Positions 7,080 through 62,540 of a stretch of DNA of 64,000 nucleotides are shown here, in pieces. Within the stretch, counting starts at the first letter, position 1. Each line of letters opens with the position of its first letter. The translations under genes were made by a program, and so were the position numbers. The stretch spans positions 23,132,566-23,196,565 of the forward strand of contig NC_058063.1 of the NCBI RefSeq assembly GCF_020085105.1, written 5' to 3'. The stretch comes from Siniperca chuatsi. Lineage: Eukaryota; Chordata; Actinopteri; Centrarchiformes; Sinipercidae. A model generated the notes under the pieces. It was not told where the DNA came from. It made no database searches and saw only the letters and a list, made by a program, of their open reading frames with translations.

Positions 7080-10000
7080 CTGTGGAGGAAAAATTAAACA
7101 TTACTTTGTTGTAGATATATGTAGTGTCTAAGAGTCGGCCATGCTCCCATTAATCTGGGCCAAATCTGAACATGAAATACTGCATTAGAAATTATGACAA
7201 GGTTCGCTGTAGAGTTTTTGACCTCTTGTAGCACTTTGGAGCGGTTTTGTTTCTCATGCACGAAGGGGAGAAGAAGACTTCCAGCTAGTACACATGGATG
7301 TAAACAATGTTGGGATTTAAAATACCTAAAAAAAATTCTTTCAAATGTTTTATGAGGAAGAAAATAGTTTTGGGCGGTATCAAGCTGTTACGATATACCA
7401 GAAATCCCAAAGGTATGATTTTCAATACCGTCAAAAAAAAAAACAGACGCTCCTCTTTCAATTTAATGTATATTATATTATTTGATTATAATCATTGATG
7501 CATTCATTTGTCCATCACTTTAATGTTGCAGCTGGTAAAGATGGGTGGCAGCTATAATAATATATCATATTATGATAATATTTTGGATAATTAATCTGAA
7601 TCTGCAACATAACTAAAGCTGTCAGATAAACGTCGTGAAGTAAAAAGTCCAATATGTCCCTCTGAGATGTGGTGGAGTAGAAGTAGAAAGTGGCACAAAA
7701 TGGAAATACTCATGTAAAGTACAAGTACCTCAAAATTGTACTTAAGTAAAGTAATTGAGTAAATGTACTTAGTTACATTCCAAGAGAAGGCGTCTTACAG
7801 AAGGCGCCACTGGGGAGACGACGTTTCCTCACACCTTCTCACAACTTGAGGCAATGACATCACATGTGACAGACTGGGGTATTTTTGTCCGTTTAAACTT
7901 AAAACGCTTACAACAGTCAAAATGTTGGTGAGAAAACTCTGAAAATAAGTATGTGTTATTTTGGTGATTTCTGATCAATACTGAGCAAAAAAAGAAAATG
8001 CTGTGCCTTCAGTAGAAATTAATGCAAGACACCGAATGTCACTGCGGACTCATCGTTTGACCGATCTGAACACCATTTGAAACGTGATAGCTGCAGTGAG
8101 TCAAACTTTTGTCACATTTGAGTGGATGTGCTGTTAAGATTTCAGCTCCGTAGGCTGATTTATTTTGATTTTTTGAAGTTTAGAATGTGAATTGTATAGA
8201 AATGTAAATTTGTTGTAATAAGTCATGCCCACTTTAAGCAATCAAATTTCTGCAAACCGAATTTTTACTAATCTAAGTAGCTGATTACAAGATATAAACT
8301 TCTTGCATTAGTGGCGCCCCCTGGAGGTGCGGCGCAACACGCTTTAAGACGTAAGCTAAGTGAAAACTGTACGTTTGTCTCAAATTTTAGGTTGATATCT
8401 CAATGCGTTCATAAGTTATTGCAAATTTTTGAAAATGAGCTATTTTGATAAAAATTGATTGACTTGTAAAATATAAACCGGAATGACGTATTGAAATTTG
8501 CTTGATAGCTTTAGATCAGCGAAGTCCGTAGATTATCCTGCCAAAGTTTCAGGACTTATAACCTAGCGGTTTCTGACGAGTTCGCAAAAGTAGTTCTTGA
8601 TAATTTGACCATTTTAGAGCAGAAGACCATTGGAGCAAAGATGCGAGACATTAAAATGGTGAAAGAATTTTGACCCTAAGCCAAGCTGTTTGAGATAACT
8701 GCAGAAACGTAAAGTTTATTGATATAGCGCCACCTTGTGGTCAATGAGTGTCATTTTATGTGCTTGAGTAATGGGTGGAATTTGCAACCCACCTGCCAGT
8801 TTTGGTGACTTTTCATTTTACGGTTGTTGCTGCACGAAAACTTTTAATCGAGAAAAAGAAGAAGAACGAAAACAAAAACAATACTAATTACCTTGAGCTC
8901 AGCTTGGCTTCATCATTTTTTATCATCACAGCATCAGTGGACGAAGAATCAGTGGCGGCCTCATCGTTTCTCTGTAAAAGGTGAAGCTCCTCCTCCTCTC
9001 CTGTCTACAAGAGTTAACAAAAAAAGGCTGAAAATTAAAACTAATGCTGGTTTAATTTAAAAAGGATAACAATATACAGTGGTGTGAAAAAGTGTTTGCC
9101 CCCTTCCTGATTTCTTATTTTTTTGCATGTTTGTCAAATGTTTCAGATCATCAAACAAATTTAAATATTAGTCAAAGATAACACAAGTAAACACAAAATG
9201 CAGTTTTTAAATGAAGATTGTTATTATTAAGGGAAAACAGAATCCAAACCTACATGGCCCTGTGTGAAAAAGTGATTGCCCCCTAAACCTAATAACTGGT
9301 TGCTCCACCCTTAGCAGCAACAACTGCAATCAAGCGTTTGTGATAACTTGCAATGAGTCTTTTACAGCGCTGTGGAGGAGTTTTGGCCCACTCATCTTTG
9401 CAGAATTGTTGTAATTCAGCCACATTGGAGGGGTTTCGAGCATGAACTGCTTTTTTAAGGTCATGCCACAGCATCTCAATAGGATTCAGGTCAGGACTTT
9501 GACTAGGCCACTCCAAAGTCTTCTTTTTGTTCTTCTTCAGCCATTCAGAGGTGGACTTGCTAGTGTGTTTTGGATCATTGTCCTGCTGCAGAACCCAAGT
9601 TCGCTTCAGCTTGAGGTCACGAACAGATGGCCGGACGTTCTCCTTCAGGAGTTTTTGGTAGACGGCAGAATTCATGGTTCCATTTATCACAGCAAGTCTT
9701 CCAGGTCCTGAAGCAGCAAAACAGCCCCAGACCATCACACTACCACCACCATATTTTACTGCTGGTATGATGTTCTTTTTCTGAAATGCGGTGTTACTTT
9801 TACGCCAGGGACACACACTTTCCAAAAGGATCCACAGAGTATTTCCCCAAAAGTCTTGGGGATCATCAAGATGTTTTCTGGCAAAAATGAGACGAGCCTT
9901 AATGTTCTTTTTGCTCAGCAGTGGTTTTCGTCTTGAACTCTGCCATGCAGGACATTTTTGCCCAGTCTCTTTCTTATGGTGGAGTCATGAACACTGACCT

Positions 10001-13000: not shown

Positions 13001-15379
13001 GGTCCTTCAGATCTTGTCTCTGTCTGGAGCTCGTTGCTGGTCCTGCCGACAGCTGCTGGTCTTCATCTCCACCATCACCCTCTTCGTCGTCACCGTACCA
13101 CAAGAGGCCCAGGCTCCCAGTGTCCTCCACACCTGGAGATGTCAATATAAGACTGCAGGTAACTGATTTTCATTAATCGGTCTATAAAAACAGCGGAAAA
13201 TAAAAAGAGCCAATTACAGAGCACAGTCCAAAACTCAAAATGTAATAAATCGTCACATTTAAGGAGACTTAACTGAAGATTTAGTTTTTTATTGTTACAA
13301 AAAATTACTTAAATGATTAATTAATTTTCTTTATTCTTTATTGGAATAATTAAATATTTTAAAAAAATAATAATAATTTGCAGAGCACGGTTTATAAATA
13401 AGGTGCAGCTAAATGTTTAACCTAAAAAAACAAAATGTTACAAAAACATTAAAAAATTAAACATAAAATATAACAAATATAAATAAGGCAGAAAAACTAA
13501 ATAAACTACAAACTCCCACATCTCCCACTGTTCATACACATTTTATTCTAAATACTTTCAGTCAATAAACTATGACTAACACTCCCGGCTCAATTTACCA
13601 CCTACACTTCAACTCCCTTCAGCACTTTCACCGCAACGTAACTCAGCGTTTACACTTCAACTGACACTGCAACTTCATTCAGCACTTCTATTTTCACTTC
13701 TTTCACTATTTTAAACACTTCAACTGCACAATTTCAGTAGTGAGTACATTTACTTAAGTACAAATTTGAGGTACTTGTACTTTAATTTCTTCTTCTACGT
13801 CTCACTTTACTTCACTACATTTATCTGACAGCTTTAGTTACTTTACAGATTCAGATTTTTACACAAACGATTAGTCGATTAATCGATTAGTCGACTGACA
13901 GGAAATGAATCAGCAGCTGTTTTGATGTTTGAAGTCGTTTTTCCTGTAAATCCCTTCCTGGCTGCAGCTCCTCAGATGTGCAGATCTGCTGCTTTTCCTC
14001 TGAACGACTGTAATAACTGTGATGTTTGTTAATAACGTCGAGCTTCGGACTGCCGGTGACGGCGTTTCTCACCGTTTTCCAAACCGATCGATCGATGGAT
14101 CGACGGATCGACAGAGAAAAGAATCGGCAGATGGATCCAGAATGAAAAGCATCATCAGCTGCAGTCCGACACAAACCGGTTCAACATGAGCTCCAGCTCC
14201 ACCAGCTGCAGCAGCAACATCCTGCTTTACATTAATGCACGAGGAATAATAACCTGATGATAGAATATATAACAGCACAGCAGCCACAGGGACGCTGCAC
14301 TGCTTTAATGCTTTAAGGGCTTTTTCCTGATCACACTCTCACACTTTCACTGCAGCAACACTTTCAATTTTTACTTGTAACAGAGTATTTTTACAGTGTG
14401 GTATTAGTACTTTTACTTCAGGATCTGAATACTTCCTCCTACACTGGCGAGCGCACATAACATCTTAATAAGATTTTGCCTTTTCTGGTTTTACAGGTAA
14501 AAACTTTACATTTCACCTGTTCTTCTAAATGTTCTTAACTGTATTCGGTTTGTTTTTTCCCCCAAATGTTATAAACACGTTTTAAGAAGAAAGGGTGAAG
14601 ACTTACCTGACTGCTGTGTGTGCTGCTGCTCCTCTTCCTCCTCCCTCACAACATCCACCTCATGGCCTTCTACATCTGGGGTCAGGGCGGTGGGATTTCA
14701 GTAAGAAAAGTAAAAGAAAGTCTGATAAATTTAAAAAAAATGTTCCCTAAACATGTGTTTTCATTGCAGCTTCAAACGCACATGCTACAGAACCACGGCA
14801 GTGATTCGGTAATCATATGCAATCAAAGTCCAGCAAGTTATTTCTCCATATTAGCATTTTGACAGCAGGGCCCATGAGCCAAATGTGAAACCTGACTTAA
14901 TTTACTACAGTTAGAATAACTTTCTGCACGCCGATTTGTAAACCACATCATGACCATGTGTGTGAGTGTTCACTTCATGTCCTCCGACGTCTGCAGGTTT
15001 ATCAGCGAGCAAAGAAACTTTAAATTAGCTGTTTTTTAAATGAAGTTCCGCAACTTTACATAACAGAGCGTTCTTGACTGGAGGTAACGGTGCTGTTTAT
15101 TACTCAGAGTTGATTCACCCACTGACCTCTTCTCTCTAGTTTGACCCGAGGCTGCAGGAGAAGCTCCAGCTGCCTCCTCTGCCGGTGGATCTCCTGCCTG
15201 AAGCCCGAAGCCTCCTCCTCGTAACCGGCTACGGTTCTCTCTACAACCGCTAAGATTTCCTGCGCGGCCGTTGTCAGTTTCTCGGTGACGATTCCTCTCA
15301 GGATCTCCGCTTTAGACACGTTGCTGAGACTGTCGAGTGTCTCAGAGCCGCCACTGTTCCTCTCCATCCAGTAAAACAT
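5804..15379 (-). CDS. Zinc-finger gene 1: ten-exon C2H2 protein with coiled coil and duplicated hook/domain cassette
   Basis: Predicted nuclear DNA-binding protein of 911 residues. Coding exons (minus strand, 5' to 3'): 15127-15379, 14607-14675, 12979-13132, 12418-12533, 12035-12276, 11412-11563, 10999-11114, 10648-10892, 8892-9004, 5804-7079. All have AG/GT borders, all nine junctions keep phase, and there is no internal stop. Domains: coiled coil about 24-80; acidic exons to about 158; AT-hook-like RRRPGRPRI in exon 4; unnamed CPRGLQEADFL domain about 198-278; Ser-rich TGE-type exon; second hook (RRRRGRPRL); second domain about 368-449; second TGE-type exon; acidic linker; 12 C2H2 fingers in the last exon. 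A second in-frame Met four codons downstream is an alternative start. Target DNA is unknown. A Tc1-like element sits in intron 8. The model is inferred from sequence; transcripts would confirm it. Confidence 0.85.
7490..7785 (+). repeat. MITE copy in intron 9 of gene 1
   Basis: Reads ATCACTTTAATGTTGCAGCTG, then an AT-rich core, then GACATTTGGAG-like text and TACAAGTACCTCAAAATTG to a TTAGTTACATTCCA end. It is the opposite orientation of the family copy at 13735-14446. Confidence 0.6.
8290..8880 (+). repeat. Dispersed repeat between gene 1 exons 9 and 10
   Basis: A long AT-rich dispersed repeat beginning at GCGCCCCCTGGAGGTGCGG, with a second GCGCCACCTTGTGGTCAATG landmark near 8728. Its end (8748-8876) is matched in inverted orientation by 12676-12805. 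Confidence 0.55.
9077..10505 (-). mobile_element. Tc1-like transposon, inactive, in intron 8 of gene 1
   Basis: Left end reads TA/CAGTGGTGTGAAAAAGTG, with the inner direct repeat (GTGTGAAAAAGTGATTGCCC) near 9262. The minus strand encodes a helix-turn-helix N-terminus (9915-10283, IYQSGKGYKAISKALGLQRT) and, in another frame, the catalytic C-terminus (9289-9825) with [11 protein letters not shown] and [13 protein letters not shown]. The segment that normally carries the first catalytic Asp (TDETK in copy 2) is deleted near 9830, so the enzyme cannot be functional. The right end has the inner repeat but breaks off near 10505 in a T-rich run, so the outer terminal repeat is lost. Confidence 0.92.
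10648..11114 (-). other. Cassette B of gene 1: second hook exon plus second domain exon
   Basis: Exon 7 (10999-11114) is 116 nt, exactly the length of exon 4, and encodes RRRRGRPRLGEEP then KVCMLEDSQSDVLSKK. Exon 8 (10648-10892, 245 nt) encodes VLLKSSIQEVRCPRGLQEAD to TLLYIRLK, one codon longer than exon 5. Exon 9 (8892-9004) begins TGEEEELHLLQRNDE, matching the TGED exon of cassette A. The repeats are in tandem, in the same order and the same phases. Confidence 0.8.
12035..12533 (-). other. Cassette A of gene 1: hook exon plus CPRGLQEADFL-domain exon
   Basis: Exon 4 (12418-12533, 116 nt) encodes RRRPGRPRIS, an AT-hook-like core, followed by LRIRILEDSRADVLSKR. Exon 5 (12035-12276, 242 nt) encodes the unnamed domain from VYKKYPLQELQCPRGLQEAD to SALYIRLK. 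Exon 6 (11412-11563), a Ser-rich TGED exon, completes the cassette. Equivalent exons follow downstream as cassette B. Confidence 0.8.
12676..12805 (-). repeat. Inverted partner of the repeat at 8748-8876
   Basis: The reverse complement reads TTATGTGCCTGAGTAATGGG, then TTTGGTGACTTTTCG, GGTTGTTGCTGCACGAA and AATCGAGAAGAAG, the same order as 8750-8876. It lies in intron 3 of gene 1. Confidence 0.75.
13735..14446 (+). repeat. Full-length MITE copy in intron 2 of gene 1, interrupted by another repeat
   Basis: Starts CAGTAGTGAGTACATTTACT and ends GAATACTTCCTCCTACACTG, i.e. inverted CAGT...ACTG ends. The family reads through GTACTTGTACTTTA and GACAGCTTTAGTTACTTTAC on the left and TTTTTACAGTGTGGTATTAG on the right. 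The middle (about 13868-14220) carries a different repeat with GATTAGTCGATTAATCG. Confidence 0.6.
15127..15379 (-). CDS. Exon 1 of zinc-finger gene 1 (coiled-coil start)
   Basis: Encodes [20 protein letters not shown] followed by a heptad-like stretch rich in Glu and Arg up to [14 protein letters not shown], then a donor (AGAG/GTCAGT) in phase 1. This N-terminal helix is familiar from many teleost zinc-finger proteins and probably mediates dimerisation. Nearly the same exon recurs at 31542-31829 and 56632-56878. Confidence 0.85.
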
Positions 15380-16213: not shown

Positions 16214-16215
16214 TA

Positions 16216-17045
<830 letters not shown>

Positions 17046-17310
17046 TTGAAAATACTGAATATAATGCGACTATATGGCGCTTGGCTTGTGGAGCTCAAAG
17101 CACCAAAAAAATACATTTGAAAAACTCAATCCTGACCAGGTTACTCAAGATAATCCTCAGATTTGTTGTGAGCAGTTTCATGTAGGAACTATTTTCTTTC
17201 TACCGATAGTTCCTACAAGAAACTGCTCACAACAAGGTCTGTGGAGTAACTGGGTCATGATTTCTGGAAAGAGACGTTGCTGTTGAGTTTTTCAGGACAC
17301 TATACAGAAT
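17046..17310. repeat. Fold-back repeat with imperfect hairpin
   Basis: The left arm ends GATTTGTTGTGAGCAGTTTC then ATGTAGGAACTAT; the right arm begins ATAGTTCCTACAAGAAACTG then CTCACAACAAGG. Further out the left arm has TTGAAAAACTCAATCCTGAC and the right arm the complement of TGAAAAACTCAACAGCAACG, so the arms extend beyond the hairpin but differ by small deletions. A perfect version of the hairpin is at 57165-57245. Confidence 0.75.
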
Positions 17311-18693: not shown

Positions 18694-18695
18694 TA

Positions 18696-19138
18696 CAGTG
18701 GTGTGAAAAAGTGTTTGCTCCTTCCTGATTTCTTATTTTTTTGCATGTTTGTCACTTAAATGTTTCAGATCATCAAACAAATTTAAATATTAGTCAAAGA
18801 TAACACAAGTAAACACAAAATGCAGTTTTTAAATGAAGGTTGTTATTATTAAGGGAAAACAAAATCCAAACCTACATGGCCCTGTGTGAAAAGGTGATTG
18901 CCCCCTAAACCTAATAACTGGTTGGGCCACCCTTAGCAGCAACAACTGCAACCAAGCGTTTGTGATAACTTGCAATGAGTCTTTTACAGCGCTGTGGAGG
19001 AATTTTGGCCCACTCATCTTTGCAGAATTGTTGTAATTCAGCCACATTGGAGGGTTTTCAAGCATGAACTGCCTTTTTAAGGTCATGCCACAGCATCTCA
19101 ATAGGATTCAGAAATCAGGAAGAGGGCAAACACCACTG
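18696..19138. mobile_element. Internally deleted Tc1-like element (MITE form), 443 bp
   Basis: Starts TA/CAGTGGTGTGAAAAAGTG at 18694 and ends GGGCAAACACCACTG/TA at 19140, so both ends and the TA target duplication are present. It holds the left terminal repeat and a little of the transposase 3' region, then jumps to a short right end (AATCAGGAAGAGGGCAAACA). No transposase is encoded, so any movement would depend on another copy. Confidence 0.85.
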
Positions 19139-28090: not shown

Positions 28091-28745
28091 AATCACCGGA
28101 CACGTTTGACACTTTTAGTGCCGTTAATTCTTTTAGACAGAATCTGAGCTTCAGTCTTGCGGCAGTCTGATCCAATGTGGTGGGACTTCATGTGTCTTTT
28201 CACACAGTGGCTCTGACTGAAGGCCATGTCGCAGACAGAGCACTTGTAAGGTTTCTCCCCAGTGTGGACCCTCATGTGAGTCACCAGGTTTGAGTTGCAT
28301 AAAAATCCTTTGTTGCATTTGCTGCAAACGTGCGGCCTCTGTCCGAGTGACTCAACATGTGTTGGGATAAAGTTTCAAGGCTGCGGAGGGATTTACCGCA
28401 CATGTTGCAGCGGTGCAGCTTCTCACCTGTGTGGGTCAACCTGTGACGTGTCAGATCAAACTTTGAAACACATGATTTTTGGCACAAATCACATTTGTGT
28501 GGCTTATCCACCTCATGGACCCACTTGTGATTCCTTAGCACCGACCTCTGAGCGAACGCTTTGTGGCAAATCTTACACTCGTACGGTTTCTTTCCTTTGT
28601 GTCGAGCGACGTGTCCGTTGAGGCCAGTGATGGAGAGGAAAGACTTTCCACAGATCTTACAGCTGTGTGTTTTCTGGTGACTTTGAAGATGACTCCTCAG
28701 CTCCTCTGCAGACTCTGAATGTGAGCAACAAACCGATAAAATCAT

Positions 28746-43699: not shown

Positions 43700-44391
43700 G
43701 AACTTTGTTTCTTCTTCTTTCCTCTCCCATTAATCATCTCATGACCCCTCAGATTGATCTAGTGACCCTTTGGAGGGGCCCGAACCCTAGGTTGAAAACC
43801 ACTGGACTAAACTAGCTAACCGTACATAAACTAGTTAAAACTAGCTAACTGTATATAAAGCAGTTAAACTAGCTAACTGTACATAAACTAGTTAAAACTA
43901 GCTAACTGTATATAAAGCAGTTAAAACTAGCTAACCATACATAAAGCAGTTAAAACTTGCTAACTGTACATAAACTAGTTAAAACTTGCTAACTGTACAT
44001 AAACTAGTTAAAACTAGCAAACTGTACATAAACTAGTTAAAACTAGCGAACTATATATAAAGCAGTTAAAAAACTAAGCTAAACTAGTATACAAAAGCAG
44101 TTAAAACTAGCTAACTGTATAAAAAGCAGTTAAAACAAGCTAACTGTATATAAAGCAGTTAAAACTAGCTGCACCTCGAGCAGCTACACCAGTAAAATGC
44201 TGCTCTAACGTTGATGAATCAGTATAACAATCTAATAAGATAGAATCAGATATCAGACATTTTACAGCAGAACCAGTAGTTATACTGCTGATACTTTAAC
44301 TACATGAAGCTGATAATACTTGTGTACGTTTACTTCAGTAGGATTTTGAACGCAGTTTTTTGTAGCGTGGAGGAATACTTCTTCCACAACT
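43700..44391 (+). repeat. MITE copy with a short internal 29-30 bp array (array 1)
   Basis: Left part ends GTTGAAAACCACTG at 43804. Then about 12 units of an AACTAGCTAACTGTATATAA-type repeat with AAGCAGTTAA follow to about 44172, then AGCTGCACCTCGAGCAGCTA and a right end GAATACTTCTTCCACAACTG at 44391. It is the small counterpart of the array at 47424-52012. Confidence 0.8.
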
Positions 44392-45071: not shown

Positions 45072-46477
45072 TCAGGACTTCTGTCCATCCACTGCTGACT
45101 GTTCTTCCCCCTGGTGGCTCCTCATGTGTGTTTTCAGACAGTGGCTCTGAGTGAAGGCTTTGTCGCAGACAGTGCACTGGTACGGTCTCTCCCCGTTGTG
45201 GGTCCTCATGTGGACCGTCAAGTGTTCTTTGCGAGCGCACGCTTTCCCACAAACCCCGCAGACAAACGGTTTGATGCCTGAATGGGTTTTCAGATGGGCT
45301 CTGAGAATATTCCTACAGTTAAAGGTTCGTCCACAGTCTGAGCATCCGTACGGTCTCTCCCCAGTGTGGATCATCATGTGTCTCCTCAGAGCTCCTTGAG
45401 ATGACAATCCCTTACCGCATTCGCTGCACACGATCTTCTCCTCGCTGTGTGTTTTCAGGTGAGCCTTTAACTGACCTCCTGTGTGGAACGCTTTGCAGCA
45501 AACATCGCAGAGGTGCGTTTTGTCTCTATCTGTGTGTATTTTCTCATGTTGTTTTGCTTTTCCAGGAGTTAAAAACCGCTTCCCACAAACCTGACAGCTG
45601 TAACGTTTTTCCCCAGCGTGACCCAACTTGTGTCGGGATAAAGATCGAAAGTCACTGACAGATTTACCGCACTCATCGCAGCGGTAAGGCTTCTCACCTG
45701 TGTGAATCCTGCTGTGAATCCTCAGCTGCTGTTTAAAAACAAAAGACTGATTACAGACATCACATTTGTGTGGTTTCTCCTCCACATGTTCCCACCGGTG
45801 AAGCCTCAAAGTAGACTTCAGCGTATATGCTTTATGGCAGATATCACATTTGTATGGTCTCTCTCCAGTGTGTAGAGTAGCATGCCTATTTAAACCAACA
45901 ACAGTGAGGAAACACTTTCCACAGATGTTACAGCTGTGTGTTTTCTGGTGACTTTGATGAAGATGACTCTTCAGTTCCTCTGCAGACTCCTTCTCTTCTC
46001 CACACACTCCACAAAGCCTTTCTGGATCGTCCACGTGACTCCAGGAATGTTTAATCAACACGTTCGTTGACCCGCACAGAGCTCGGCAGACCTTACAGGA
46101 CAGAGGAGCGTCGCTGTTATCAGTCGATGCCTTCAGAGGCGACTGCATCATTTGGACGCCTGAATGTTCAACTCGTCGCTTCCTCGTCGTCTTTGATGAG
46201 TTCGGTTCAGCTTCGCTCTCCCTCAGCTCCTCGTCATTGTTGTCTGGTTTCCAGTCGTCATCTCTGTCATCTTCCTCCACCACCTCATCATCATCATCAT
46301 CATCATCATCATCTCCATCTTCCCCTTCGCTCTCAGCTGCAGAGCGGGCAAAAGAAAGATCACTAAAGTCATCTGGTTCTGATATTCCACGTTGTTCTCC
46401 GTTTTCGTCTGTTTCCACTTGTTGTTGCTGGCTCGAGTTGCCGGAGAGACGATCTTCTTGGTTGCTCTCCACTTTTT
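45072..46477 (-). CDS. Terminal zinc-finger exon of gene 2 (12 C2H2 fingers)
   Basis: Encodes an acidic head ([10 protein letters not shown] run, [11 protein letters not shown]), basic [11 protein letters not shown], then fingers from [21 protein letters not shown] to [21 protein letters not shown]. The order and unusual second finger match gene 1 finger by finger. Middle fingers differ at the helix positions that contact DNA, so the two proteins probably bind different sites. Confidence 0.92.
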
Positions 46478-49400
46478 CTACAGAACTGAAGGTAGAAAAT
46501 AAGCAGTTTCATTATTTAAATTTATCTTCATCTTTGGCACGGTATCAAAATGTGCTTACTGAGGCCTTGAGGACACCTCAGGTCCTGCACTGGAGACTTT
46601 AACACTAACACACAATGTCTGCTGCTACTTTTTGTTTTCAGTGTTAACAATAACAAACACCTCTCTGTTTAATATAATACAGTTCAACAGCAGCACAAAC
46701 TACATCTTACGAAATGATCAACACAAACTGAACATTATAACCTTCATGAAGGAGGATTTATTACAGGACTTAAATCTAGCTAGCTGTACCTAATAAACTG
46801 GACACTGAGTGTTTCCTCCAACGCACACTCCCAACATCCTGACTGGACATTTCACTTTCCTGTTGGACTCTTACCGCCTTTTTTGAGCACATTTGTCTGA
46901 GAGTCCTCTAACAGACAGACTCTGAGGTTTAGAGGAGCCCGCCTCCAGCGCTTCCTCCTCACAGACTGACCTCTGCAAGAAAATCAAGGAAAAAAATCTA
47001 GCAATCCTTCAATGTAGTTCTGTGTGTCAGTGTTATTCCCCAACATACCCAAATCTTTCTGTCTCACTCCCAAGGAAACATTATGTAGTAACATCATATC
47101 ATGTTTGAACCTAGGATTTGATATCTGATGATCCGGATCCCTGAGATCCTCCTGATCTAGACTGGTGTTCTGTGCTGGTTCCTCAACAGACTCCTCCTTC
47201 TCATCTTCACCCTCCTCCTCCTCAGCGTGGCCTAAGATGTCCCGGCTCCTCGAGTCCTCCACATCTTAACAAAATAATAAAATAAAGAGTCAAAAATGTG
47301 ATTTTGTTTAAATTCTGAAAGCTTAGTTTTAACTTATTTCCTCTCCCATTAATTATCTCACGACCCCTCAGATTTATCTGGTGACCCTTTGGAGGGGCCC
47401 GACCCCAAGGTTGGGAACCACTGGACTGAACTAGCTAACCGTATACATAAAGCAGTTCAAACTAGCTAACTGTGTATAAAGCAGTTCAAACTAGCTAACC
47501 GTGTATAAAGCAGTTCAAACTAGCTAACCGTACATAAAGTAGTTCAAACTAGCTAACCGTATACATAAAGCAGTTCAAACTAGCTAACTGTGTATAAAGT
47601 AGTTCAAACTAGCTAACTGTGTATAAATAATTAAAACTAGCTGACTGTATATAAAGCAGTTCAAACTAGCTGACTGTATATAAAGTAGTTCAAACTAGCT
47701 GACTGTATATAACGTAGTTCAAAGTAGCTAATCGTATATACGTAAATAATTAAAACTAGCTGACTGTATATAAAGCAGTTCAAACTAACTAACCGTACAT
47801 AAAGCAGTTCAAACTAGCTACCTGTGTATAAAGCAGTTCAAACTAGCTAACCGTGTATAAAGTAGTTCAAACTAGCTAACCGTGTATAAAGCAGTTCAAA
47901 CTAGCTAACCGTGTATAAAGCAGTTCAAACTAGCTAACCGTGTAAAAAGTAGTTCAAACTAGCTAACCGTACATAAAGTAGTTCAAACTAGCTAACCGTA
48001 CATAAAGCAGTTCAAATTAGCTAACCGTGTACATAAAGCAGTTCAAACTAGCTAACTGTGTATAAAGTAGTTCAAACTAGCTGTGTATAAATAATTAAAA
48101 CTAGCTAACTGTGTATAAATAATTAAAACTATATAAAGCAGTTCAAACTAACTGACTGTATATAAAGCAGTTCAAACTAACTGACTGTATATAAAGCAGT
48201 TCAAACTAACTGACTGTATATAAAGCAGTTCAAACTAGCTGACTGTATATAAAGCAGTTCAAACTAGCTGACTGTATATAAAGCAGTTCAAACTAGCTGA
48301 CTGTCTATAACGTAGTTCAAAGTAGCTAATCGTATATACGTAAATAATTAAAACTAGCTGACTGTATATAAAGCAGTTCAAACTAGCTGACTGTATATAA
48401 AGCAGTTCAAACTAACTGACTGTATATAAAGCAGTTCAAACTAGCTGACTGTATATAAAGCAGTTCAAACTAACTGACTGTATATAAAGCAGTTCAAACT
48501 AACTGACTGTATATAAAGCAGTTCAAACTAGCTGACTGTATATAACGTAGTTCAAAGTAGCTAATCGTATATACGTAAATAATTAAAACTAGCTGACTGT
48601 ATATAAAGTAGTTCAAACTAACTAACCGTACATAAAGCAGTTCAAACTAGCTACCTGTGTATAAAGCAGTTCAAACTAGCTAACCGTGTATAAAGCAGTT
48701 CAAACTAGCTAACCGTGTATAAAGCAGTTCAAACTAGCTAACCGTGTAAAAAGTAGTTCAAACTAGCTAACCGTGTAAAAAGTAGTTCAAACTAGCTACC
48801 TGTGTATAAAGTAGTTCAAACTAGCTAACCGTGTATAAAGCAGTTCAAACTAGCTAACCGTGTACATAAAGTAGTTCAAACTAGCTAACTGTGTATAAAG
48901 TAGTTCAAACTAGCTGTGTATAAATAATTAAAACTAGCTAACTGTATATAAAGCAGTTCAAACTAACTGACTGTATATAAAGCAGTTCAAACTAACTGAC
49001 TGTATATAAAGCAGTTCAAACTAGCTGACTGTATATAAAGCAGTTCAAACTAGCTGACTGTATATAAAGTAGTTCAAACTAGCTGACTGTATATAACGTA
49101 GTTCAAAGTAGCTAATCGTATATACGTAAATAATTAAAACTAGCTGACTGTATATAAAGTAGTTCAAACTAACTGACTGTATATAAAGTAGTTCAAACTA
49201 ACTAACCGTACATAAAGTAGTTCAAACTAGCTAACTGTGTATAAAGTAGTTCAAACTAGCTAACTGTGTATAAAGTAGTTCAAACTAGCTAACTGTGTAT
49301 AAAGCAGTTCAAATTAGCTGACTGTATATAAATAATTAAAATTAGCTGACTGTATATAAAGCAGTTCAAACTAGCTGACTGTATATAAAGCAGTTCAAAC

Positions 49401-52400
49401 TAACTGACTGTTTATAAAGCAGTTCAAACTAGCTGACCATATAAAGTAGTTAGCTGAAATTAGCTGACTGTATATAAAGCAGTTCAAACTAGCTAACTGT
49501 ATATAAAGTAGTTCAAACTAGCTGACTGTATATAAAGTAGTTCAAACTAGCTGACTGTATATAACGTAGTTCAAACTAGCTGACTGTATATAAAGTAGTT
49601 CAAACTAGCTAACGTATGTAAATAATTAAAACTAGCTGACTGTATATAAAGCAGTTCAAACTAGCTGACTGTATATAAAGCAGTTCAAACTAGCTGACTG
49701 TATATAACGTAGTTCAAAGTAGCTAATCGTATATACGTAAATAATTAAAACTAGCTGACTGTATATAAAGTAGTTCAAACTAACTAACCGTACATAAAGC
49801 AGTTCAAACTAGCTACCTGTGTATAAAGCAGTTCAAACTAGCTAACTGTGTATAAAGTAGTTCAAACTAGCTAATCGTGTATAAAGTAGTTCAAACTAGC
49901 TAATCGTGTATAAAGCAGTTCAAACTAGCTAACCGTGTATAAAGCAGTTCAAACTAGCTACCTGTGTATAAAGCAGTTCAAACTAGCTAACTGTGTATAA
50001 AGTAGTTCAAACTAGCTAATCGTGTATAAAGTAGTTCAAACTAGCTAATCGTGTATAAAGCAGTTCAAACTAGCTAACCGTGTATAAAGCAGTTCAAACT
50101 AGCTAACCGTGTATAAAGCAGTTCAAACTAGCTAACCGTGTAAAAAGTAGTTCAAACTAGCTAACCGTACATAAAGTAGTTCAAACTAGCTAACCGTACA
50201 TAAAGTAGTTCAAACTAGCTAACCGTACATAAAGCAGTTCAAACTAGTTAACCGTATACATAAAGCAGTTCAAACTAGCTAACTGTATACAAAGCAGTTC
50301 AAACTAACTGACTGTATATAAAGCAGTTCAAACTAACTGACTGTATATAAAGCAGTTCCAACTAGCTGACTGTATATAAAGCAGTTCAAACTAGCTGACT
50401 GTATATAAAGCAGTTCAAACTAGCTGACTGTATATAAAGCAGTTCAAACTAGCTGACTGTCTATAACGTAGTTCAAAGTAGCTAATCGTATATACGTAAA
50501 TAATTAAAACTAGCTGACTGTATAGAAAGTAGTTCAAACTAACTGACTGTATATAAAGTAGTTCAAACTAACTAACCGTACATAAAGCAGTTAAAACTAG
50601 CTACCTGTATATAAAGCAGTTCAAACTAGCTGACTGTATATAAAGTAGTTCAAACTAGCTGACTGTATATAAAGCAGTTCAAACTAGCTAACCGTACATA
50701 AAGTAGTTCAAACTAGCTAACCGTACATAAAGCAGTTCAAACTAGTTAACCGTATACATAAAGCAGTTCAAACTAGCTAACTGTATACAAAGCAGTTCAA
50801 ACTAACTGACTGTATATAAAGCAGTTCAAACTAACTGACTGTATATAAAGCAGTTCCAACTAGCTGACTGTATATAAAGCAGTTCAAACTAGCTGACTGT
50901 ATATAAAGCAGTTCAAACTAGCTGACTGTATATAAAGCAGTTCAAACTAGCTGACTGTATATAAAGCAGTTCAAACTAGCTGACTGTATATAAAGCAGTT
51001 CAAACTAGCTGACTGTCTATAACGTAGTTCAAAGTAGCTAATCGTATATACGTAAATAATTAAAACTAGCTGACTGTATATAAAGTAGTTCAAACTAGCT
51101 GACTGTCTATAACGTAGTTCAAAGTAGCTAATCGTATATACGTAAATAATTAAAACTAGCTGACTGTATATAAAGTAGTTCAAACTAACTGACTGTATAT
51201 AAAGTAGTTCAAACTAACTAACCGTACATAAAGCAGTTAAAACTAGCTACCTGTATATAAAGCAGTTCAAACTAGCTGACTGTATATAAAGTAGTTCAAA
51301 CTAGCTGACTGTATATAAAGCAGTTCAAACTAGCTGACTGTATATAAAGCAGTTCAAACTAGCTGACTGTATATAACGTAGTTCAAAGTAGCTAATCGTA
51401 TATACGTAAATAATTAAAACTAGCTGACTGTATATAAAGCAGTTCAAACTAGCTGACTGTCTATAACGTAGTTCAAAGTAGCTAATCGTATATACGTAAA
51501 TAATTAAAACTAGCTGACTGTATATAAAGCAGTTCAAACTAGCTAACTGTGTATAAATAATTAAAACTAGCTGACTGTATATAACGTAGTTCAAACTAGC
51601 TGACTGTATATAAAGCAGTTCAAACTAGCTAACTGTGTATAAATAATTAAAACTAGCTGACTGTATATAAAGCAGTTCAAACTAGCTGACTGTATATAAA
51701 GCAGTTCAAACTAACTGACTGTATATAAAGCAGTTCAAACTAGCTGACTGTATATAAAGCAGTTCAAATTAGCTAACCGTGTACATAAAGCAGTTCAAAC
51801 TAGCTAACCGTATATATAAAGCAGTTCAAACTAACTGACTGTATATAAAGCAGTTCAAACTAGCTGACCATATAAAGTAGTTCAAATTAGCTGACTGTAT
51901 ATAAAGTAGTTCAAACTAGCTAACGTATGTAAATAATTAAAACTAGCTGACTGTATATAAAGTAGTTCAAACTAGCTAACCGTATATACGTAAATAATTA
52001 AAACTAGCTAACACCACAGCACTGAAACAGCCCTTCTCAAAGTCACCAATGACCTTTTAATGAATGCAGACGCAGGCATGTGTTCAAATTCTTGTGCTGC
52101 TGGACTTAAGTGCTGTCTTTGACACAATTTATCATGGCGTTCTTTTAGATAGACTGAGGCACTGGGTGGGCATATCTGGCACTGCACTAGACTGGTTCTC
52201 ATCTTATCTGTCCAATAGGAAATTCTGTGTCAGCATTAAAAACTTCATGTCATCCTTTTCCCATATCAAGTACGGTGTGCCTCAAGGTTCAATTCTGGGA
52301 CCAATACTGTTCTCCTTATACATGCTTCCTTTGGGTGATGTAATCCGCAGACATGGTATTTCTTTTCATTGTTATGCGGATGACACGCAGTTGTACCTCC

Positions 52401-55400
52401 CTGTCGAGCCCACTGACCTTAGTACGCTGAGTTCTCTGCAGGACTGCCTGTCTGACATAAAAAATTTGATGTCGATAAATTTTCTTCAGCTCAACTCAAA
52501 CAAAACTGAAATCCTTGTAATTGGGCCCCAACACATCACTAAACAAATACTGCCATCTACTGGTAACCTGTCACAACATAACAAGCCTGTTGCAAGAAAT
52601 CTTGGTGTCCTGTTTGATAACAATTTATGTTTTGAGCAACATATCACTAAGCTTGTCCAATTATGTTTTTATCACTTCAGAAACATTGCAAAAATACGAT
52701 CTATTTTAAAGTTTAGTGATGCAGAAACTGTTGTACATGCTTTTATTTTCTCACGCCTCGATTATTGTAACAGCCTGTTCACTTGTCTTAATCTAAACAC
52801 TCTGACAGACTGCAGACTGTACAGGACTCAGCTGCTCGGCTGTAAACCAGGACCCAGAGGTGCGACCACATCACACCTGTTTCAGCCTCTTTACATCGGC
52901 TCCCTGTTTGTTTTAGAATTGATTTTAAGATCTTGTTTATTTCTTTTAAGGCTCTTCATGGCCTGGCTCCAGACTATATTTTAGACCTTGTAATCCCTTA
53001 TGAACCTTCACGTAGTCTGAGATCTTCGGGCAGGGGTCTCCTGTCTGTTCCTGAGTCCAGGATGGAAACTAAGGGGGACAGAGCTTTGGCCATCAGGGCC
53101 CCGAGGCTCTGGATCAACCTGTCCGAAGACATCAGGCTGTCTGAGTCAGAGTCTTCGTTTAAGTCTCGTCTCAAAACACATTTTTATCTGAAAGCAGATC
53201 CTGATTTTACCTGAACTGGCTGTTTATTTTATTGCTTTTGTGTATTTTATGTATTTTATTTCTTTATATTTCGTCATTCACTGTGGTATTTTATTTCTCT
53301 TGTTGTGAAGCACTTTGTTTTGATAAGTGCTCTATAAATAAAGTTTTATTATTATTATTAACTGTATATAAAGTAATTAAAACTAGCTCCACCTCAAGCA
53401 GCTACAACAGCCGAGGAAGGAACAACCTGAAGAAGACCAACTTCCACTGCTGAGGTCACGTGATTTCCTGTCAACTGCAGAATTGCTCTTGCGGAGGTCT
53501 GCCATTTTATGTCTGCAGCTAGGTATTCTCGTAAAGCGTAGGCGACTGAGTTTCACTATACAGTCCTATTTACTTTTGTATGTTCAGCTAACCTAGCTTT
53601 CATTACAAACACACATTCGTTTGCCTCATAAATAACAGCAATTCATCGATCACCTTGATCTTGCAGAAATTGTGAATGTGTCATTCCCCCGTTGTCGCCA
53701 CACTCGTGTGCGCGCTTGGTATAAGCGCATTAAAGCAGTTGCTGATAAAAGGCACTTTGTTTGGGCGTAAAACAAAAGCCTTTGCCAATAACACAAAGGC
53801 CCTTCTTGAGTTAGATATGCAGGAAAAACCCTCATAATTATGCATTAATGTGTTCATCACTTTAATGTTGCAGTTGATAAATGTGGAGCTAATTTTAAAT
53901 ACTTTTTATACTGCTGAGTAGCTTAATCTACAATACCACATTATCAAGTAGCAGAAAATGGAAACTATTTTTAAAGTGGATTTAAAGACGTACTCTGCTC
54001 ATATTTGTGCCGCACTTCCTCTTCAGGGAGTTCAGCTGCTCCTCCAGCCGCCGGCTCAGAGACAGGAAACTGGTCATCTGGATCACAGACAGACAGTATT
54101 GTTTTTTATTCAATTAAAACCTAATAATCACATCAGAATTCTGTTTTTCTTAGGAACAACTAAAGACTTATTTTGCTGAAACACTATTGAATTAATTCAT
54201 TAATTCAGTAATCAATTAATTACTTGGGTAAATGTACTTAGTTTGCTACTTTCCACCACTGGTCCCATTAGGGTGATATTTACCGCTGAGTGGCAACGCT
54301 TTAGATTACAACCTGCAGCGTACAGCGTAATTACTCCGGAGTTACGGTGTCGTCTTTTGTACTAACAGTGCACCAGTACGTACCAATACATATGTAGGCA
54401 CTGGGGAACAAGAAGTGAAGTTATGGAATAAGGAGCAAGCAATTCAGGATCTTACAAAGAACTTATAATGCAGTTATTATTTAACTCCTGGGTACCTTTT
54501 CTATTATTACAGGGTGCAGTGTTACCATAAAACTGAGCAGAAGTCTGGACGTTTCAGGGACGATGGAGTGATGACTTCTGCATTTAATCATGTGGTTTTA
54601 TTTAAAAATGACTTTATTACCAACAAACAGGCAAAAAAAATCCACTAATTATCACCAGAGAAATGTTTGATCTGCTCAGTCACCATTGTCCTTTGGTGCT
54701 GATCCAGGAACTAGCCTGGTGGTTATTGTGGCCATGTGGTCTGGGTTAGGTACATGTTCAAAATCTCCATCTGACTTGAGGATAAAGGAGAGCTCAGCTT
54801 CAAGACCCAGATTCAAGTCCCAGCCATCAAACCTGTGAGCTTTATTACTCTGTAACTGAATGTAACAAGGGCGGAACTAAAGTGCTATAAGCCGTGTTTC
54901 CACCGCAGGAACTTTCCTCAGGGACCAGGAACCTTTGGAGGAACTCAGTGTGTTTCCACCGCAGAGACCAGAGTCTAAATTAAGTACCGGGGACATTATT
55001 TTACCACACTGGAACTGTGGGGGTGGAGCTTTAAGCGTTGACCATTTCCGATTTGTTGAGGACTCGCAGCATTTAATTTCAGGCGCCATTTTTAAATATC
55101 TGCAGCCGCAATCCAACTTTTGTGCTTCAACACATCGACATGCAGCCGCAGATGAAAGGTTACAACAGATGGACCGACGACGAAGTCCAGGTCTTGCTGA
55201 GTATTTAGGCTGAGGACAAAATCCTGCGATGATTGTAAACAGCGACCAGAAACAATAAGGTGTACGCCAAAATCTCCAGAAAGTTAAGCGAGCTGAAAAT
55301 TGTTCACACCGGGAGAAGATTAAAAATCTCAAACAAGATTACAAGAAAATCAAGGACCACAACAACCGGGCTCCGACCGGCGGACCAGCAAGTGGTTCGA

Positions 55401-57760: not shown

Positions 57761-57855
57761 TGATACTCTGCCAGTTGCATCCTCGCTTCGTGAACCCGGC
57801 TTCTATGCGGGAAAATACCAAGAGGCTTCCTTTGGTTGGTTTTCGTTAGTTTGAG

Positions 57856-58556
57856 AGAGAGCAGCGGTGGCCGAGTGAGCCAGAGAGTGAATAAGGAGAG
57901 GGAGCGGTGGTCGAGTGAGCCAGAGAGTGAATAAGGAGAGGGAGCGGTGGTCGAGCGAGCCAGAGACTGAATACGGAGAGGGAGCGGTGGTCGAGCGACC
58001 CAGAGAGTGAATAAGGAGAAGGAGCGGTGGTCGAGCGACCCAGAGACTGAATAAGGAGAAGGAGCGGTGGTCGAGCGACCCAGAGACTGAATAAGGAGAA
58101 GGAGCGGTGGTCGGCGACCCAGAGACTGAATAAGGAGAGGAGCGGTGGTCGAGCGAGCCAGAGGGTGAATAAGGAGAAGGAGCGGTGGTCGAGCGACCCA
58201 GAGACTGAATAAGGAGAAGGAGCGGTGGTCGAGCGACCCAGAGACTGAATAAGGAGAGGGAGCGGTGGTCGAGCGAGCCAGAGGGTGAATAAGGAGAAGG
58301 AGCGGTGGTCGAGCGACCCAGAGACTGAATAAGGAGAGGGAGCGGTGGTCGAGCGAGCCAGAGGGTGAATAAGGAGAGGGAGCGGTGGTCGAGCGAGCCA
58401 GAGAGGGTATAAGGAGAGGGAACGGTGCTCGAGCGACCCAGAGACTGTATACGGAGAGGGAGCGGCGGTCGAGCGAGCCAAAGACTGAATAAGGAGAGGG
58501 AACGGTGGTCGAGCGAGCCAGAGAGTGAATAAGGAGAGGGAGCGGTGGTTTGCGAG
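57856..58556 (+). repeat. 40-bp minisatellite
   Basis: About 17 copies of GGAGCGGTGGTCGAGCGACC + CAGAGACTGAATAAGGAGAA with scattered substitutions (GAGCCAGAGAGTG variants). A continuous minus-strand frame of 246 codons spans it only because the unit lacks stops in that phase cycle. Confidence 0.95.
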
Positions 58557-59639: not shown

Positions 59640-60370
59640 TAATTTGTTGGATTTTTAATCTGCTGTCTCCGTGTGCAGCAGTCCGGGTTTAAACCGCCAA
59701 AGTCCCGGATCGACGGATCCGTTTGAACGTTGCGCGTAGAAAGAGAAAACGCGAGGAGCAGCTAGCTTAGCTTAGCCTTTAGCCGCTTCCTGAGCAACAG
59801 TCTCAACTTATATTTTTATAACAGCAGCGTGTTGGTGTCTCTGCTGCTCCTCTCGGCTTTACGGAGCTTAAAGCTGAAGAGAAAACCAGCGAACACTGTA
59901 ATGATTTTAAAGCAAAAGCGATGTTTAAAAACGGTATAATCATCTTCTTCTTCTTCATCAGTGACGATGGCTGACCGGAAGGCTGTTGATGATCGATTAG
60001 AGTCGTCAGGAATAATCTCTCAGTATTTCTGCTTTTATAAAAGTGTCGAAACAGCCCAAAATATAACGACCATCTGATCCCAAAGCGTCCGAAAAGAAAG
60101 CCGAGAGGAGGAAGCATTTTTCGGCCGCACGCGTTCAGGCTGGCGGGAGAACGTCATACAGGTGACCCCACCTGACTGATGACGCTTCAGCTCTGTCATT
60201 AAATCTGTCACTCTGTTCTGAAGCAACGCGTTGCAGTAAAACACTCCATCGGTAATGAAGTAATCAATAATCAGTAATTAATAATCAATAAAAGCCCAAA
60301 TATAAAATTCTTTTGCTGACAGGAAATATTAACTTACCTTATTGTTGTAGGTTAGTCTCAGGGTCACTGA
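59640..60370. other. Intergenic sequence upstream of the pyrimidine tract
   Basis: Contains a short CTCGGCTTTACGGAGCTTAA repeat piece near 59850. The minus frame 59803-60117 has no domain. No gene seen. Confidence 0.4.
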
Positions 60371-62540
60371 AGCCTCCTCTCTCCTCCTCTCCTCTCCTCT
60401 CGTCTCCTCCTCCTCTCTCTCCTTGTCTCCTCTCTCCTCCTCTCATCTCTTCCTCTCCCCTCGTCTCCCCTTGTCTCCTCCTCTCTCTTCGTCTCCTCCT
60501 CCCTCCTCTCTCCTCGTCTCCTCTCCCCTTGTCTCCTCCTCTCTCTTCGTCTCCTCCTCCCTCCTCTCTCCTCGTCTCCTCTCCCCTTGTCTCCTCCTCT
60601 CTCTTCCTCTTCCCTCGTCTCCTCATCTCCCCCTGTCTCCTCCTCCTCCTCTCCCCTCGTCTCCTCTTGTCTCCTCCTCCTCTCTCCTCGTCTCCTCTCC
60701 CCTTGTCTCCTCCTCTCTTCCTCTCCCCTTGTCTCCTCCTCTCTCCTCGTCTCCCCTTGTCTCCTCCTCTCTCCTCGTCTCCTCCTCCTCTCTCCTCTTC
60801 TCCTCGTCTCCTCCTCCTCTTCTCCTCGTCTCCTCCTCTCTCCTCGTCTCCTCTTCTCCTCGTCTCCTCTTATCTCCTCCTCTCTCCTCGTCTCCTCCTC
60901 TCCCCTCGTCTCCTCCTCTCCCCTTGTCTCCTCCTCCTCTTCTCCTCGTCTCCCCTTGTCTCCTCCTCTCTTCGTCTCCCCTTGTCTCCTCCTCGTCTCT
61001 CCTCGTCTCCTCCTCCTCTCTCCTCCTCGTCTCCTCCTCCTCTCCTCTCCTCGTCTCTCCTTGTGTCCTCCTCTCTCCTCGTCTCCTCCTCTCCCCTTGT
61101 CTCCTCCTCGCCTCCTCCTCCTCTCTCCTCGTCTCCTCCTCTCTCCTTGTCTCCTCCTCGTCTCCTCGCCTCCTCCTCGTCTCTCCTCGCCTCCTCCTCC
61201 TCTCTCCTCCTCTTCTTGTCTCCTCCTCTCTCCTCTCTTCGTCTCTCCTCGTCTCCTCCTCTCTCCTCGTCTCCTCCTCTCTCCTCGTCTCCTCCTCGTC
61301 TCCTCGCCTCCTCCTCCTCTCTCCTCCTCCTCTCCTCGTCTCCTCCTCTCTCCTCGTCTCCTCCTCCTCTCTTCGTCTCTCCTCGTCTCCTTCTCTCTCC
61401 TCGTCTCCTCCTCGTCTCCTCGCCTCCTCCTCCTCTCCTCTCTTCGTCTCTCCTCGTCTCCTTCTCTCTCCTCGTCTCCTCGCCTCCTCCTCCTCTCTCC
61501 TCGTCTCCTTCTCTCTCCTCGTCTCCTCCTCCTCTCCTCTCTTCGTCTCTCCTCGTCTCCTCCTCATCTCCTCTCTTCGTCTCTCCTCGTCTCCTTCTCT
61601 CTCCTCGTCTCCTCGCCTCCTCCTCCTCTCCTCGTCTCTCCTCGTCTCCTTCTCTCTCCTCGTCTCCTCGCCTCCTCCTCCTCTCTCCTCGTCTCCTTCT
61701 CTCCTCGTCTCCTCCTCCTCTCCTCTCTTCGTCTCTCCTCGTCTCCTTCTCTCTCCTCGTCTCCTCTCTCCTCGTCTCCTCCTCGTCTCCTCTCTTCGTC
61801 TCTCCTCGTCTCCTCCTTGTCTCCTTCTCTCTCCTCGCCTCCTCCTCTCTCCTCCATGTCTCCTCGCCTCCTCCTTCTCTCTCCTCGTCTCCTCCTCTCT
61901 CCTCTCTTCGTCTCTCCTCGTCTCCTCGCCTCCTCTTTCCTCGTCTCCTTCTCTCTCCTCGTCTCCTTCTCTCTCCTCATCTCCTCGCCTCCTCCTCCTC
62001 TCTCCTCGTCTCCTTCTCTCTCCTCGTCTCCTCCTCATCTCCTCTCTTCATCTCTCCTCGTCTCCTTCTCTCTCCTCGTCTCCTCGCCTCCTCCTCCTCT
62101 CTCCTCGTCTCCTTCTCTCTCCTCGTCTCCTTCTCTCTCCTCGTCTCCTCGCCTCCTCCTTCTCTCTCCTCGTCTCCTCCTCTCTCCTCCTCCTCTCCTC
62201 TCTTCGTCTCTCCTCGTCTCCTCCTCTCTCCTCTCCTCTCTTCGTCTCTCCTCGTCTCCTCCTCGTCTCTCCTCGTCTCCTTCTCTCTCCTCGCCTCCTC
62301 CTCCTGTCTCCTCGCCTCCTCCTCCTGTCTCCTCGTCTCCTTCTCTCTCCTCCTCCTCTCCTCTCTTCGTCTCTCCTCGTCTCCTCCTCTCTCCTCGTCT
62401 CCTCCTCCTCTCTTCGTCTCTCCTCGTCTCCTCCTCTCTCCTCGTCTCCTCCTCCTCTCCTCTCTTCGTCTCTCCTCGTCTCCTTCTCTCTCCTCGTCTC
62501 CTCGCCTCCTCCTCCTCGCCTCCTCTCTCCTCCTCTCCCT
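60371..62540 (+). repeat. Polypyrimidine tract, CTCCTCGTCTCC-type, about 2.2 kb
   Basis: Almost only C and T on the plus strand, with regularly spaced G (CGTCTCC, TTGTCTCC, CGCCTCC). Unit lengths vary around 10-20 bases. All plus-strand frames are open for long distances, as are purine-rich minus frames, because the unit contains no stop triplet. Confidence 0.97.

What the first reader, a model, noticed from the sequence alone, without database searches (positions are those of the whole stretch)
47424..52012. 4.6-kb array born from the inside of a MITE
The 29-bp unit equals the segment near the middle of the CAGTGG...CCACTG MITE family, and the array is bounded by the MITE right part (AGCTCCACCTCAAGCAGCTA at 53388) and a hAT-like end on the left. 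Thus a single transposon segment appears to have expanded to about 155 copies with higher-order blocks. This is a direct view of satellite birth.
Basis: partly seen in the sequence, partly recalled or inferred. Interest (0 to 1): 0.72.

Follow-up and report, generated by a model that had tools for sequence, protein, structure and literature searches.

The report
Subterminal minisatellite grown inside a transposon
A 29-letter piece from the middle of a common mobile element has multiplied about 157 times here; among the copies sampled in this genome the same piece stays at one or two in the middle of chromosomes and multiplies further only near their ends, so place seems to help decide whether it turns into repetitive DNA.

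Summary
The array is real: 47429-52012, ~157 tandem 29-bp units, with irregular block duplications. Its unit is a segment of a hAT-type MITE ("MITE#1") that is single in ordinary copies (701 places for the segment; 37 of 40 read are single, none arrayed). The hAT-like left end belongs to a second MITE nested in MITE#1 beside the segment. Of 78 copies with an exact right junction, >=3 units occur in 34 of 51 within 4 Mb of a contig end and 0 of 27 farther in (p=1e-9); un-nested MITE#1 is spread evenly, 26 of 90. Expanded copies are rejected as one clade, though clustered, and unit order is mostly locus-specific, so most arrays probably grew in place, likely by slippage/unequal exchange between AACTAGCT repeats 29 bp apart. 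MITE-to-satellite birth is known, and subtelomere-only growth of a transposon segment is published for frogs (PMC10794172). Minisatellite scale; new member of a known kind.

The parts
47322..47423 (-). right end of a second hAT-type MITE (hAT#2; ends ..GGTTGGGAACCACTG), nested in MITE#1 next to the segment; its other end is lost here
   Evidence: same ~105-bp flank at 43703-43808 and in 12 of 20 other array loci; intact 691-bp copy with GATTAAAC target duplications at L020:1851-2541
47424..47431 (.). diverged copy of the hAT#2 8-bp target duplication (GACTGAAC here, GATTAAAC intact)
   Evidence: sequence compared with L020
47429..52012 (+). main array, ~157 units of 29 bp; private unit variants (C at unit position 28 in 85% of units, G at position 9 in 49%)
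52013..53359 (+). LINE fragment (starts inside the reverse transcriptase domain, ATT-repeat tail) inserted near the right edge of the array; 3-4-bp target duplication (T)AAC
   Evidence: RVT_1 PF00078 E=1.9e-18, profile positions 67-193 of 205; boundaries read
53360..53380 (+). rest of the last 29-bp unit, TTAA type
53381..53410 (+). 30-bp remnant of the MITE#1 right half (AACTAGCTCCACCTCAAGCAGCTACAACAG)
   Evidence: nhmmer match, model positions 1-30, E 6.7e-5
43703..43804 (-). hAT#2 right end of the second array
43809..44170 (+). second array of the same unit, 12.3 copies
44163..44364 (+). MITE#1 right half of the second array
   Evidence: nhmmer E 1.1e-53
53838..53893 (-). MITE#1 copy whose segment is present once (weak model match, E 0.55; segment read by eye); a CAGTGG end is at 54256-54261
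7491..7812 (-). MITE#1 copy with CAGTGG end, no array
14189..14447 (+). MITE#1 right half, no array
   Evidence: nhmmer E 1.1e-33

Best explanation
The array is a minisatellite that grew from one 29-bp internal segment of a nonautonomous hAT-type MITE. Shown: (a) the segment is single in most MITE#1 copies read; (b) in one lineage a second hAT MITE is nested at GATTAAAC directly before the segment, and this nested element exists at many loci with one unit; (c) arrays of 3 or more units were found only within 4 Mb of contig ends in the samples taken; (d) unit order is mostly private to a locus. Inferred: once the segment's first eight bases read AACTAGCT it is flanked by a perfect direct repeat (AACTAGCT..AACTAGCT, 29 bp apart). 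Misalignment between the two at replication or break repair makes the first tandem copy (the array unit is AACTAGCT from the 3' side joined to AACTGTATATAAAG[C/T]AGTTAA). In a presumably recombination-rich subterminal zone, unequal exchange then expands it and duplicates blocks. At this locus growth was long enough to bring private variants to high frequency, the outer MITE parts were lost, and a LINE landed near the right edge afterwards.
For: Single-unit segment: 701 places, reversed control 0; of 40 places read further, 37 single, 3 other, 0 arrays. Right junction shared: 457 places, control 0. Ladder ~1, ~2, 3.6, 5-7, 9, 10, 14-42, 107 units among 78 exact-junction copies. Nesting precedes growth: 33 of 41 single-unit copies carry the hAT#2 end. 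TSDs: GATTAAAC/GATTAAAC around hAT#2 in L020, 1 of 105 end pairs at the true offset and 0 at six shifted offsets; CTCAGCTG around the whole L020 composite, 1 of 9 loci inspected; ATAAAATC around array-bearing L059 (2 hits for 52 ends at the true offset, 0 at three shifts). Position: 34 of 51 vs 0 of 27 (p 1.1e-9); without contig C18 18 of 35 vs 0 of 26 (p 6e-6); 40 of 40 array places picked's list, the window's included, within 4 Mb; un-nested MITE#1 26 of 90, as uniform. Position effect holds within age tertiles (one-sided permutation p 3.5e-4). Local growth: in-register unit similarity between loci equals shuffled order; 0 of the window array's 155 variant three-unit words occur in the 50 other arrays, 45% recur within it; 28 of 48 arrays share no such word with any other. 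One origin of expanded copies rejected, p-AU 0.023.
Against: Expanded copies have less diverged hAT#2 flanks than single ones (median 0.060 vs 0.113 and 0.163), so age and position are partly confounded; the least diverged third all lie within 6 Mb of an end. Expanded copies are clustered on the flank tree more than chance (12 changes vs 16.8 shuffled, 6-7 of 500 shuffles as low), supported branches force only 3 changes, and 33 of 48 branches are unresolved. Nine of 48 arrays share 20-73% of their variant three-unit words with some other array, and L034 and L080 on C17 share a private left breakpoint, so some array-bearing copies were themselves copied. The left context was recognised as nested in only 18 of 37 copies of >=1.8 units (15 unclear, 4 ran off the fetched piece). 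Low unit counts depend on scoring (L037 3.7 or 6.9, L043 1.1 or 3.6). The AACTAGCT seed test is only suggestive: exact seed 14 of 18 nested expanded vs 15 of 33 nested single (p 0.04), TACC type 0 of 18 vs 9 of 33 (p 0.02), and leftmost units may have been overwritten by conversion. Single AACTAGCT copies could be contracted arrays. Recombination rates were not measured. The window's own two arrays are not among the 78 copies (their junctions differ by point changes).
Confidence: 0.72

Rival explanations
1. An array-bearing MITE subfamily transposed recently, and its copies lie near chromosome ends because they insert or are kept there; most arrays did not grow in place.
For: Expanded copies have less diverged flanks and cluster on the flank tree (6-7 of 500 shuffles as low); GCAG-type last units in 29 of 37 copies of >=1.8 units vs 9 of 41 single ones; units differ little between loci (within 0.075, between 0.081); nine of 48 arrays share 20-73% of variant three-unit words with another array; L034 and L080 share a left breakpoint; array-bearing L020 and L059 have intact 8-bp duplications.
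Against: Unit order in register is no more alike between loci than shuffled order at either end, and 28 of 48 arrays share no variant three-unit word with any other; expanded copies are rejected as one clade, p-AU 0.023; single and expanded copies pair up with strong support (L020/L098, L035/L099); position effect remains within age classes.
Confidence: 0.21
2. Arrays are ancestral and interior copies shrank to one unit; chromosome ends merely preserve them.
For: Single-unit copies with the array-type AACTAGCT seed exist both near and far from ends (8 near, 6 far); 0 of 27 interior copies keep >=3 units, as thorough contraction would give.
Against: The un-nested relatives, 701 places with the pre-array TACCC segment, were single in 37 of 40 read and never arrayed; TACC-type seeds are found in 9 of 33 nested single copies and in none of 18 nested expanded ones.
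Confidence: 0.06

Closest known systems
SINE/tRNA-V 52-bp minisatellite of Xenopus tropicalis (PMC10794172, passages read)
   Same: A short piece of a dispersed mobile element becomes a minisatellite only in copies in subtelomeres; authors propose recombination-driven expansion.
   Different: There a SINE 3' tail, in frogs with ~20-Mb subtelomeres; here a hAT-type MITE interior with a nested second MITE, within ~4 Mb of contig ends, with a candidate seed repeat and a ladder from 1 to 107 units in the 78-copy sample.
miDNA4 and Xstir MITEs of Xenopus (as described in the review PMC12628747, passages; originals not seen)
   Same: MITE-internal tandem repeats from one monomer to arrays; flanking short direct repeats proposed as cause; arrays outlive MITE ends.
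   Different: miDNA4 is a Tc1/mariner MITE; no nested-element or chromosome-position comparison was seen in those passages.
Tetris/TIR-220 of Drosophila virilis (PMC4079207, abstract and one section)
   Same: Transposon-borne repeats amplify into kb-size satellite-like arrays; unequal crossing over invoked.
   Different: ~220-bp repeats inside terminal inverted repeats of a foldback element, amplification favoured in beta-heterochromatin.

Membership tests
hAT-type MITE (MITE#1) | short terminal inverted repeats CAGTGG..CCACTG | tested here: met
   CAGTGGTGGAAAGTAAG../..CCTCCACCACTG in L059; the hAT label itself is recalled, not from a call
hAT-type MITE (MITE#1) | 8-bp target-site duplication | tested here: met
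   L020 CTCAGCTG (1 of 9 loci inspected); L057 CCCAATAC and L059 ATAAAATC (2 exact matches for 52 right ends tried); most copies have decayed ends and gave none
hAT-type MITE (MITE#1) | no coding capacity, mobilised by a related hAT transposase | not tested
   no transposase search was made; elements of 0.66-2.6 kb between duplications were seen
Satellite DNA | long homogeneous arrays, usually heterochromatic | tested here: not met
   the largest of the 51 arrays unit-counted is this one, 4.6 kb (some others were cut by the fetched length); mean unit difference within it 14%; assembly collapse cannot be excluded
Minisatellite (dispersed, subterminal) | 10-100-bp unit, array of about 0.1-20 kb (recalled definition), biased to chromosome ends | tested here: met
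   29-bp unit, kb-size arrays, 40 of 40 and 34 of 34 within 4 Mb of a contig end
Satellite higher-order repeat (HOR) | fixed multi-unit period repeated many times | tested here: not met
   block duplications at many different lags

The most novel reading that the evidence does not exclude
Birth of a tandem repeat here needs two keys: a point change that completes a perfect 8-bp direct repeat around a 29-bp transposon segment (AACTACCT to AACTAGCT, in a lineage marked by a nested second MITE), and a position within about 4 Mb of a chromosome end. With both keys 34 of 44 copies have >=3 units; with the first alone 0 of 7 (all copies of >=1.8 units were counted as having the first key, so this tests the second key, not the first). 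Un-nested copies without the first key were not arrayed in any of the 25 read near ends. This would make tandem-repeat birth predictable from sequence and place.
Probability: 0.35. Interest if true: 0.72.

Novelty: new member of a known kind. Interest (0 to 1): 0.52.

Why it matters
How single-copy DNA becomes a tandem array is usually reconstructed from the end product. Here one genome holds hundreds of copies of the same starting sequence at known places, unexpanded and expanded, with an internal clock (flank divergence) and a nested marker insertion. That lets position, seed sequence and age be separated by counting. It extends to a hAT-type MITE the frog observation that subterminal location goes with minisatellite growth.

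Tried and rejected
Fixed higher-order repeat period: rejected, many lags. Segmental duplication as the main source of dispersed arrays: shared flanks stop after <=427 bp (left) and <=290 bp (right) in 20 loci plus the two window arrays, with 1.6 and 1.5 kb compared; the L034/L080 pair is a likely exception. Named record of this repeat in print: the unit string was found in 0 papers; the end motifs were in 60 papers, of which 15 were listed, all of other subjects by title; searches on MITEs, satellites, fish and chromosome ends (one search listed 15 of 83) listed no matching fish case by title and start of abstract. PMC4079207, PMC12628747 and PMC10794172 were opened, in passages or named sections only. 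First unit scan by fuzzy regex missed the small array and was replaced by BLAST. One search used a wrong hand-entered count (15 of 18); corrected to 14 of 18, where the TACC tally is also by hand. Distances for contigs C1, C6, C7, C9, C10 were estimated and replaced by true lengths; searches used the earlier estimates.
Full report
What is in the window. The finding's array is at 47429-52012: 157 units of 29 bp, 86% matches, 44 distinct unit types in 158 anchored units. A second array of the same unit, 12.3 copies, is at 43809-44170. Both have the same left flank, the last ~105 bp of a hAT-type element ending ..GGTTGGGAACCACTG (GGTTGAAAACCACTG in the second), and the same right continuation, AACTAGCTSCACCTCRAGCAGCTAC. 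Between the main array and its right continuation lies a LINE fragment with a reverse transcriptase stretch (PF00078, E 1.9e-18) and an ATT-repeat tail; it split the last unit off, leaving a 3-4-bp duplication (T)AAC (read). The window is 1.5 Mb from the end of contig C22 of a 719-Mb genome in 65 contigs, 24 of which make up 718 Mb. That it is a fish is my inference from the repeats and the 24 large contigs, not a call.

The parent element. Right flanks of 11 of 20 other array loci share a MITE half over 81-290 bp, ending near CCACTG in the best kept copies. A model of this right half, built from 9 of them, finds copies with and without arrays; window 53893-53838 (-, weak match) and L023 3446 (-) show the 29-bp segment single (by reading). 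I call the element MITE#1. The segment in its un-nested form, GATTAAACTACCCAACNGTATATAAAGTAGTTAAA, is present at 701 places (<=2 mismatches; reversed control 0). Of 40 of its 90 exact places read further (25 near ends, 15 interior) 37 are single, 3 are otherwise broken, none is an array.

The nested second element. In 12 of 20 loci and both window arrays the left flank is hAT#2. MITE#1's left half lies upstream on the same strand within 850 bp in 10 of 20 loci (my reading of the match list). In L020 hAT#2 is intact: 691 bp from CAGTGGTTTCCAACC to GGTTGGGAACCACTG with GATTAAAC on both sides, the only <=1-mismatch 8-bp duplication among 105 end pairs, none among 101-105 pairs at each of six shifted offsets. 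The whole L020 composite is itself flanked by CTCAGCTG twice; the other eight loci inspected gave no convincing outer duplication. L059, with ~19 units, has CAGTGGTGGAAAGTAAG..CTTCCTCCACCACTG and ATAAAATC duplications. hAT#2 thus sits at one fixed site, immediately before the segment, in many copies: most simply one nesting event, then spread of the composite.

The ladder and its place. The right junction AACNGTATATAAAGYAGTTAAAACTAGCTCCACCT occurs at 457 places (<=2 mismatches, control 0). All 78 exact places were read. 41 have one unit, 3 have ~2, 34 have 3.6 to 107; arrays cut by the fetched length are counted at what was seen. Low counts depend on scoring: under the stricter scoring, 8 of the first 30 copies had >=1.8 units, all within 5 Mb of an end (8 of 21 vs 0 of 9, p 0.07). 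33 of the 41 single-unit copies carry hAT#2, so nesting came before growth; of the 37 copies with >=1.8 units the left side is hAT#2 in 18, unclear in 15, off the fetched piece in 4. With true contig lengths, >=3 units occur in 34 of 51 copies within 4 Mb of a contig end and 0 of 27 farther in (Fisher 1.1e-9; Spearman -0.58, p 2.6e-8); one of the 27 scores ~2 units. Leaving out C18, which alone has 17 of the 78, it is 18 of 35 vs 0 of 26. Forty distinct array places that I picked's list (itself truncated; the window's array is one) are all within 4 Mb, on 16 contigs. The un-nested MITE#1 segment is not so placed: 26 of 90 exact places, 27% expected.

Age and origin. hAT#2 flanks of expanded copies are less diverged from their consensus than those of single ones (medians 0.060, 0.113, 0.163). 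Shuffling labels within age tertiles still leaves a position effect (one-sided p 3.5e-4, 42 copies, 12 expanded). In a tree of 51 flanks expanded copies need 12 changes of label, 0% of 200 bootstrap trees make them one group, and supported branches force at least 3 changes; but the label is clustered (shuffled mean 16.8, 6-7 of 500 as low), so relatedness matters too. p-AU is 0.023 against one clade. Unit variants in register are no more alike between loci than in shuffled order (right end 2.18 vs 2.20 over 406 pairs of 29 arrays; left end 3.06 vs 3.07 over 136 pairs of 17). Of 48 arrays with enough variant three-unit words, 28 share none with any other and nine share 20-73%; none of the window array's 155 occurs elsewhere while 45% recur inside it. 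Its private variants (position 28 C in 85% of units vs 0-12% in 21 other arrays; position 9 G 49% vs 0-10%) point to long local turnover. Against growth in place at every locus, L034 and L080 share a private left breakpoint, so some array-bearing copies were duplicated.

Mechanism. Shown: single segment, nesting, mostly private arrays, subterminal restriction in the samples. Inferred: initiation by misalignment of AACTAGCT copies 29 bp apart. The array unit is exactly what such a slip would make, AACTAGCT of the 3' side followed by the segment's own AACTGTATATAAAG[C/T]AGTTAA. Seeds grade from AACTACCA and AACTACCT to AACTAGCT; TACC types occur in 9 of 33 nested single copies and 0 of 18 nested expanded ones (p 0.02), the exact seed in 15 of 33 and 14 of 18 (p 0.04). 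Growth by unequal exchange or break repair in recombination-rich chromosome ends is inferred from place and from published work, not measured.

Known relatives. MITE- or transposon-born tandem arrays are established (Tetris, PMC4079207; Xstir and miDNA4 as told in PMC12628747). The closest parallel is PMC10794172: in frogs intact SINE/tRNA-V copies are spread through the genome but a 52-bp piece is expanded only in subtelomeric copies. This case has the same logic in a hAT-type MITE, with intermediate steps visible. I therefore rate it a new member of a known kind; the two-key version is the bold reading.

Noticed in passing
window 57855-58549: Separate minisatellite, 40-bp unit, 17.4 copies, 91% matches.
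   Followed up: no
window 60373-62538: 2.2-kb CCT-rich pyrimidine tract (GC skew -0.70 in 60001-62000).
   Followed up: no
window 45072-46508 (-), 5801-6831, 28178-28722: Related stretches with internal repeats; the first holds a 478-aa open frame that reads like a C2H2 zinc-finger protein (family name from inspection). The two arrays lie on either side of it.
   Followed up: partly
window 9072-9876, 16211-17047, 18691-19120: A dispersed repeat with three copies 92-96% alike.
   Followed up: no
contig C18, 0.97-5.04 Mb: 17 of the 78 exact right-junction copies lie here, 16 of them with >=3 units; why this one chromosome end is so rich is unexplained.
   Followed up: partly
nested copies near chromosome ends: The least diverged third of 42 nested copies all lie within 6 Mb of an end, while exact un-nested MITE#1 segments are spread evenly; recent insertion there, or homogenisation between ends, would both do it.
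   Followed up: no
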